DNA of 64,000 nt from Haloarcula sp. H-GB4. Lineage in GTDB: Archaea > Halobacteriota > Halobacteria > Halobacteriales > Haloarculaceae. Every line of letters begins with the position of its first letter. Position 1 is the first letter of the stretch. The stretch is from the NCBI RefSeq assembly GCF_030848575.1, contig NZ_JAVDDX010000001.1, positions 744,001-808,000 on the forward strand, given 5' to 3'. Positions 58,438 through 58,937 of the stretch are shown here, in pieces. A program made the position numbers and the translations under genes. The notes under the pieces are model-generated. The model had not been told where the DNA came from. It searched no databases and saw only the letters and a list, made by a program, of their open reading frames with translations.

Positions 58438-58644
58438 CTAAAGCTGACTGATGCCAACACTCCCGGCAGACTCCATTCCAGGCTGGTCAGGATAGATTGC
58501 TTCCAAAAATTCGTCAGGAAGAGCGGTTACTACCGAAGAACTGATCCCAACGGTATACCGTAGCTGAAGCAACCGATATTCGTTATCAATATTTTCATTA
58601 GCGTACTCAAAATGTACGCCCGGAACACTAACGTCCGGCATCAT
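58438..58644 (-). CDS. Possible small protein or gene fragment (doubtful)
   Basis: 68 codons. The segment EYRLLQLRYTVGISSSVVTALPDEFLEAIYPDQ is moderately acidic and could be a fragment of a larger domain. No known family. It ends three bases from another doubtful frame; both may be remnants of one disrupted gene. Confidence 0.3.
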   Translation of the reverse strand: MMPDVSVPGVHFEYANENIDNEYRLLQLRYTVGISSSVVTALPDEFLEAIYPDQPGMESAGSVGISQL

Positions 58645-58690
58645 CCTCGGCGGTGTGCCATGTCAGCCGGCAAACCCTCGTGCCGGGCGG

Positions 58691-58875
58691 GTCGTTGAAT
58701 AACGACCAGATGCGCGAGCGGCGTCAGCCGCGAGCGCGGGTGATTACGGCGTAATCACCGAACGCCCAGACGGTGCAACCGTCTGGCAGATCGTCGAATG
58801 ACGACCAAATGCGGTGTGAACCGCGGTCATGTCGCGTGCCCGGGTTCTCCGGGTCGTCATCGTCCCGGTGACGGG
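58691..58875. repeat. Array of eight short perfect hairpins
   Basis: Stems with loops: GTCGTT-GAAT (58691-58706); GCGGC-GTCA (58718-58731), extended by GCGC arms through tandem G-A pairs (58712-58737); GGTGATTAC-GGC (58739-58759); CCAGACGGT-GCA (58766-58786); TCGTC-GAAT (58791-58804); GCGGT-GTGA (58811-58824); CCCGG-GTTCT (58839-58853); CCCG-GTGA (58864-58875). Two loops are GNRA type (GTGA) on the plus strand. They are joined by similar short linkers (CAGATG, CAGATC, CAAATG). The sequence lies downstream of the geranylgeranyl reductase gene. No coding frame. Confidence 0.7.
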
Positions 58876-58937
58876 TCTCAGCCGGGGATTAAAGGCACGC
58901 ACCCGTAGTTAGCCGGTCGCACACCTAAGGGTGACGT

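What the first reader, a model, noticed from the sequence alone, without database searches (positions are those of the whole stretch)
58691..58875. Eight perfect hairpins in 185 bases
Stems of 4-9 bp follow one another with short similar linkers and GNRA or GAAT loops, one including tandem G-A pairs. This is far beyond a terminator. Options: a large structured RNA, the remnant of a transposon end (IS200/IS605-type elements use hairpins and encode guide-like RNAs), or a phage/plasmid-related element. It borders the AT-rich segment.
Basis: partly seen in the sequence, partly recalled or inferred. Interest (0 to 1): 0.68.

Follow-up and report, generated by a model that had tools for sequence, protein, structure and literature searches.

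The report
Double rRNA-guide RNA with hairpin spacer
The eight hairpins belong to a small RNA, read from the opposite strand and present in essentially all salt-loving archaea sampled, that tells an enzyme which three letters of ribosomal RNA to convert to pseudouridine; the RNA itself was already predicted, but its two guides are held apart by a modular chain of hairpins that grows and shrinks between species, which I have not seen described.

Summary
In detail: 58691-58875 holds eight perfect hairpins (48 bp; shuffles 17 +/- 6, maximum 34). They are part of one RNA gene of about 290 nt on the MINUS strand (about 58901 to 58609), with its own promoter. The RNA is the haloarchaeal double H/ACA guide RNA (HP1/HP2 of Grosjean 2008). 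SL1 (58900-58834) and SL2 (58689-58617) each have a 7-bp lower stem, an rRNA-matching pocket, kink-turn signatures and a following ACA box. Pocket matching to this genome's own 23S picks U2626 (SL1, the only site) and U1961/U1963 (SL2, two of the top three). At a constant offset of 5 these are the three pseudouridines mapped in Haloarcula marismortui (2621, 1956, 1958). SL2 is found in 192 of 194 class genomes sampled, with compensatory changes in 10 of 15 pairs. Six of the eight hairpins form the spacer between the two guides: three modules of a longer hairpin A and a shorter hairpin B. Across the class the spacer runs from 0 to 208 nt, and its last hairpin abuts SL2 in 74 of 84 genomes. The RNA is known; the modular array is the possibly new part. 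Its role is inferred, not shown. The TnpB/IS option is not supported.

The parts
58609..58901 (-). Whole RNA gene (double H/ACA guide RNA), 5' end near 58901, 3' end near 58609; exact ends inferred
   Evidence: Conserved block in 30 aligned congeners; promoter about 27 nt upstream; no Rfam 15 match even at E<=5
58922..58936 (-). Promoter: BRE-like CGTCAC plus TATA-like CTTAGG (TAAG on + at 58926-58929)
   Evidence: TAAG invariant in 30 congeners although the next gene differs in some; class-wide AA...TTAA motif near -37/-30 before SL1
58826..58901 (-). SL1, first H/ACA hairpin: lower stem 58894-58900 with 58834-58840, ACA box 58830-58832, kink-turn signature CUGAG/ACGAUGA
   Evidence: Alignment A5; pair 6-67 is UA/UG/CG in all 28; coordinates
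58842..58846 (-). SL1 3' guide AACCC (5' guide UUUAAUC at 58887-58893), target 23S U2626 (= Psi2621 of H. marismortui)
   Evidence: Only U in the 23S that meets the pocket rule
58811..58824 (-). Spacer hairpin A1
58789..58806 (-). Spacer hairpin B1
58763..58788 (-). Spacer hairpin A2
58739..58759 (-). Spacer hairpin B2
58712..58737 (-). Spacer hairpin A3 (4 bp, UC/UC internal loop, 5 bp, UGAC loop)
58690..58707 (-). Spacer hairpin B3, flush against the SL2 lower stem
58613..58690 (-). SL2, second H/ACA hairpin: lower stem 58683-58689 with 58617-58623, ACA box 58613-58615, kink-turn signature CUGAC/AGGAUGA
   Evidence: Model R1; 192 of 194 class genomes; 100% of cells paired and 10 of 15 pairs with compensatory changes
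58626..58632 (-). SL2 3' guide GUUAGUG (5' guide GAGGGUU at 58673-58679), targets 23S U1961 and U1963 (= Psi1956, Psi1958)
58609..58632 (-). 3'-terminal stretch GTTAGTGTTCCGGGCGTACATTTT, repeated as junction site of gene cassettes in several congeners

Best explanation
It is the haloarchaeal double H/ACA guide RNA, transcribed from the minus strand from its own promoter. Each end forms an H/ACA hairpin. By analogy with other archaeal H/ACA RNPs, each hairpin binds L7Ae at its kink-turn and Cbf5-Nop10-Gar1 at its stem and ACA box, and its pocket pairs with 23S rRNA so that one U is presented to Cbf5. SL1 selects the U equivalent to Psi2621; SL2 selects those equivalent to Psi1956 and Psi1958 by a two-nucleotide shift of register. 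Because the modules are closed units, whole modules can be duplicated or lost without harming the guides. Shown here: anatomy, strand, conservation, covariation, target match, modular length variation. Inferred: transcription, RNP assembly, modification activity, and above all the role of the spacer.
For: Conserved in all 32 congeners. SL2 model found in 192 of 194 class genomes and 65 of 65 genera. In 59 of 59 loci examined SL1 lies just 5' of SL2 on the same strand. SL2 stems: 100% of cells paired, 10 of 15 pairs with compensatory change, 0 of 500 shuffles as high. Strand: the varying SL1 pair is UA 17, UG 7, CG 4 on minus, with none broken, whereas on plus 7 are broken; BRE/TATA upstream of SL1 class-wide. 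ACA after the SL1 stem in all 30 congeners. Targets: SL1 selects one U in the whole 23S, 2626; SL2 ranks 1961 first and 1963 tied second of nine. A constant offset of 5 makes these 2621, 1956 and 1958, the three Psi of H. marismortui reported in PMC2584109, a congener by ribosomal protein L3 (337 of 338 identical). The genome encodes Cbf5. PMC2584109 states that both hairpins are conserved in halobacteria and separated by a long spacer. Spacer: 74 of 84 end in a hairpin flush with SL2 against 57 of 332 shuffles; more hairpin energy than shuffles in 82 of 83.
Against: No transcript data were available. The SL1 5' guide pairs only 2 bp with its target in this genus (3 bp with the class consensus). 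Without proteins the minimum-energy fold is not the H/ACA fold, though that fold is only 2.1 kcal/mol higher. The insulator role of the spacer is weakened by genomes with no spacer at all (L106, L097, L101) and by the finding that the spacer-less RNA folds correctly in silico. ACA reads AUA after SL2 in two congeners.
Confidence: 0.95

Rival explanations
1. For the spacer only: the hairpin array has no selected function. Modules arise by tandem duplication and are tolerated because self-contained hairpins do not disturb the guides; selection only removes spacers that interfere.
For: Spacer 27-208 nt within one genus and 0-180 nt among other genera; repeated modules inside single spacers such as L061; spacer absent in some genomes.
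Against: Hairpins are kept while sequences change; the last hairpin abuts SL2 in 74 of 84 against 17% of shuffles; alternation of A and B recurs in many genera. Non-interference alone might still produce much of this.
Confidence: 0.4
2. The RNA lies on the plus strand, with GNRA loops and tandem G-A pairs.
For: Several spacer loops read GUGA or GCAA and A3 has GA/GA on plus; spacer G-U versus A-C counts lean only mildly to minus, 24 to 11.
Against: Guide-stem wobbles are G-U only on minus; promoter on minus class-wide; ACA boxes and matching pockets exist only on minus.
Confidence: 0.02
3. Remnant or guide RNA of an IS200/IS605 TnpB element.
For: Many hairpins in a short stretch; AT-rich neighbour.
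Against: Single copy, vertical conservation at about one copy per genome, no TnpB among the neighbouring ORFs, own promoter.
Confidence: 0.01
4. A DNA-level element, such as dispersed palindromes or a recombination site, rather than RNA.
For: The 3' end recurs at cassette junctions in congeners.
Against: The A-hairpin palindrome occurs once in its genome and about as often as its control elsewhere; strand-specific wobble and matching rRNA pockets need RNA.
Confidence: 0.02

Closest known systems
Haloarchaeal H/ACA RNA HP1/HP2 (Grosjean et al. 2008, PMC2584109; Hvo1/Hvo2 in PMC4652768; called sR-h45 in Haloferax, the name from memory)
   Same: Two H/ACA hairpins in the same order, same predicted targets 2621 and 1956/1958, separated by a long spacer
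   Different: I found no description of the spacer as a tandem array of alternating hairpins; the key experimental paper (Blaby 2011) was not held, so this is not excluded
Pf7 / Pab40 triple H/ACA RNA of Thermococcales
   Same: PMC2584109 calls HP2 the homologue of Pf7 stem III and HP1 apparently of stem II
   Different: There the hairpins are adjacent and three in number; here two, with a hairpin-rich spacer
IS200/IS605 TnpB omega RNA
   Same: Compact multi-hairpin RNA that acts as a guide
   Different: Not mobile, single copy, no TnpB, guides pseudouridylation of rRNA

Membership tests
Archaeal H/ACA guide RNA | Hairpin(s) directly followed by an ACA box | tested here: met
   ACA after the SL1 stem in 30 of 30 congeners; after SL2 ACA in all but two of those aligned, AUA in L018 and L019
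Archaeal H/ACA guide RNA | Internal pocket complementary to both flanks of a target U | tested here: met
   SL1 unique site U2626, SL2 U1961 and U1963 in the genome's own 23S; SL1 5' guide weak (2 bp)
Archaeal H/ACA guide RNA | About 14-15 nt between target position and ACA box | tested here: met
   SL1 14 nt (AACCCGGGCACGCG) by direct reading of the sequence; SL2 15 nt for U1963 and 17 for U1961, so the second register is long
Archaeal H/ACA guide RNA | Kink-turn or kink-loop in the upper stem (L7Ae site) | tested here: inconclusive
   GA and AUGA signatures invariant or nearly so in both hairpins; no structural or binding test
Archaeal H/ACA guide RNA | Helices kept by covariation | tested here: met
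   for SL2; for SL1 (two pairs with change on both sides)
Archaeal H/ACA guide RNA | Host encodes Cbf5, L7Ae, Nop10, Gar1 | tested here: inconclusive
   Cbf5 found; the other three not searched
Archaeal H/ACA guide RNA | Transcribed and guides Psi in vivo | not testable with these tools
   No expression or Psi data for this strain; Psi at the three positions is reported for H. marismortui in PMC2584109
IS200/IS605 omega RNA / transposon end | TnpB gene alongside | tested here: not met
IS200/IS605 omega RNA / transposon end | Multiple dispersed copies | tested here: not met
   One copy in own genome, one per genome class-wide except G212 with two

The most novel reading that the evidence does not exclude
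The spacer is a selected modular scaffold: alternating A and B hairpins form a stacked rod, or a row of binding sites for an unknown protein, that positions two pseudouridylation RNPs on one maturing 23S rRNA, and haloarchaea tune it by gaining and losing whole modules.
Probability: 0.25. Interest if true: 0.65.

Novelty: new variant of a known kind. Interest (0 to 1): 0.42.

Why it matters
It gives a firm identity to an RNA that Rfam 15 does not hold, shows that a class-wide model finds it in essentially every haloarchaeal genome sampled, and ties all three pseudouridines of Haloarcula 23S rRNA to one gene. The length-variable hairpin array inside an otherwise strongly conserved RNA is a clean natural experiment on what spacers in multi-guide RNAs do. 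It can be tested directly by deletion in a genetically tractable haloarchaeon.

Tried and rejected
Rfam 15: no match, also at E<=5. tRNA/tmRNA scan: none. A first contiguous-pairing target search failed because the pocket edges were set wrongly, and a duplex-energy ranking placed SL2 sites 4th and 7th but SL1 poorly; fixing the edges to the published 14-nt rule gave the clear result. That rule was chosen after seeing the failures, so the SL1 result is not a blind test, although its unique hit coincides with the published position. Idea that the A hairpin is a dispersed palindromic repeat: it is once in its genome, counts in relatives are close to the control. TnpB and IS link: rejected. The single genome-contig scan was partly wasted by a gap range set too long, so only 8 named loci came back; the genus was named instead through ribosomal protein L3. 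Papers: Blaby 2011 (PMC3138572) not held; no held paper uses the name sR-h45.

Full report
What was claimed and what is there. The eight hairpins are real. A count of perfect stems of at least 4 bp gives eight non-overlapping hairpins with 48 bp in 58691-58875; 500 dinucleotide shuffles reach at most 34 (mean 17.1). Stretches over this place rank first and second in the whole 64-kb window. The element is single copy in its genome and present in all 32 genomes of the genus.

The conserved object is larger than the finding. An alignment of 30 congeners shows two almost invariant blocks, at window 58617-58690 and about 58826-58901, with a hypervariable hairpin-rich stretch between them. Total length of the aligned element runs from 208 to 389 nt. 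Both blocks are closed by 7-bp stems.

Strand. In the block at 58826-58901 the one strongly varying lower-stem pair reads TA, CA or CG on the plus strand, so that seven sequences are broken. On the minus strand the same cells read UA 17, UG 7, CG 4 and none is broken. In the other block, across 59 loci of many genera, every cell pairs on minus, with 15 G-U wobbles. About 27 nt before the minus-strand start lies an invariant CTTAG box in the genus, and an AA...TTAA motif at -37 to -29 across the class. In some congeners the gene behind this box is a different one, so the promoter goes with the RNA. Spacer hairpins alone lean the same way but weakly, 24 G-U to 11 A-C. I conclude that the RNA is on minus.

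Identity. Read on minus, each block is a hairpin with lower stem, two-sided internal pocket, upper stem with GA/AUGA kink-turn signatures, and an ACA box just past the lower stem. This is the anatomy of archaeal H/ACA guide RNAs. Grosjean et al. 2008 (PMC2584109) predicted in Haloferax volcanii and other halobacteria two H/ACA hairpins 'separated by a long spacer', HP1 for Psi2621 and HP2 for Psi1956 and Psi1958 (H. marismortui numbering). A later paper lists Haloarcula marismortui among the species with these guides (PMC4652768).

Target test. The 23S rRNA was taken from the same genome. With pocket edges set by the published rule, SL1 fits one U in the whole molecule, position 2626. SL2 gives nine candidate sites, of which U1961 is first and U1963 ties for second. 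Subtracting a constant 5 gives 2621, 1956 and 1958, all three pseudouridines reported for H. marismortui. The genus is Haloarcula or very near: ribosomal protein L3 is 337 of 338 identical to chain B of PDB entry 1s72, which I know to be the H. marismortui 50S subunit. Cbf5 is encoded in the genome. Caveat: the SL1 pocket edges were settled after two less well-set trials, and its 5' guide pairs only 2 bp in this genus.

Distribution. A covariance model of SL2 finds 192 of 194 genomes of the class, in 65 of 65 genera, nearly always once, and gives weak matches outside the class. In 59 of 59 loci tested SL1 lies directly 5' of SL2 on the same strand. SL2 shows compensatory changes at 10 of 15 pairs, with no shuffle reaching the observed score.

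The spacer, where six of the eight hairpins lie. Spacer length runs from 0 to 180 nt among other genera and from 27 to 208 nt within the genus. It is nearly all hairpin: more hairpin energy than shuffles in 82 of 83. The arrangement recurs: a longer hairpin A, typically 26 nt with a UC/UC internal loop and a UNAC-type loop; a linker that is most often four nucleotides beginning with A; a shorter hairpin B of 18-22 nt; then 0-1 nt. The last hairpin abuts the SL2 lower stem in 74 of 84 genomes against 57 of 332 shuffles. Single-hairpin spacers are mostly 14-34 nt, two-hairpin ones mostly 35-52, four-hairpin ones mostly about 92-114; this step-like pattern was read off the table, not tested formally. 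L061 carries near-identical first and third modules. In the window there are three A-B modules. The hairpins persist while their sequences change, which suggests that pairing is kept; a non-interference rule could also produce this.

Mechanism. Best supported: an H/ACA RNP guide, with each end presenting its U to Cbf5. For the spacer I favour an insulating, self-folding separator, but evidence against it exists: some genomes have none, and the RNA without spacer still folds correctly in silico. I hold the spacer role only loosely; the confidence given for the best explanation refers to the identity and guide function, not to the spacer role.

What is known and what may be new. The RNA and its targets are known. 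It is absent from Rfam 15. The tandem hairpin array is not described in the papers I could read; the main experimental paper was not available, so novelty of that part is provisional. I therefore rate it a new variant of a known kind, of moderate interest.

Side observation. The last 14-24 nt of the RNA gene recur as junctions of gene cassettes immediately 3' of it in several congeners. The 14-mer TAGTGTTCCGGGCG occurs once per genome at the RNA and 12 more times, all but one (a separate contig, G019) within about 8 kb on the same strand. Most non-RNA copies are preceded by a shared imperfect palindrome around CTACTAGTAG. Cargo includes a Fic/Doc protein, an HTH protein, transporters and DUF7344. 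No integrase was noticed in the ORFs listed.

Noticed in passing
L108 (9170, 7734, 6077, 4932, 1995), L109 (2652, 4620), L110, L111, L112, L113; in the window 58609-58632: The 3' end of the H/ACA gene is a site where integrase-less gene cassettes pile up in tandem in several Haloarcula-like genomes; most junctions share TAGTGTTCCGGGCG preceded by an imperfect palindrome around CTACTAGTAG. It resembles a tRNA-type attachment site or an integron-like array; the recombinase is unknown.
   Followed up: partly
L108 5184-5672, L110 2955-3455, L112 2466-2954: Closely similar Fic/Doc proteins occur in cassettes of three different species at this site, and a similar HTH plus small-protein pair in L108 and L110, suggesting that cassettes move between species.
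   Followed up: no
G212:C1:1714773-1714856 and 3469973-3470056: The only one of 194 class genomes with two copies of the SL2 hairpin.
   Followed up: no
G217, G218, G229, G233, G248, G253 and others outside the class: Weak SL2 matches (E 2e-6 to 8e-4) in other classes of the phylum, probably distant relatives of the same guide.
   Followed up: no
SL1 5' guide, window 58887-58893: This genus carries AAUC (one congener GAUC) where most of the class has AGUC, removing one pair with the predicted 23S target.
   Followed up: partly
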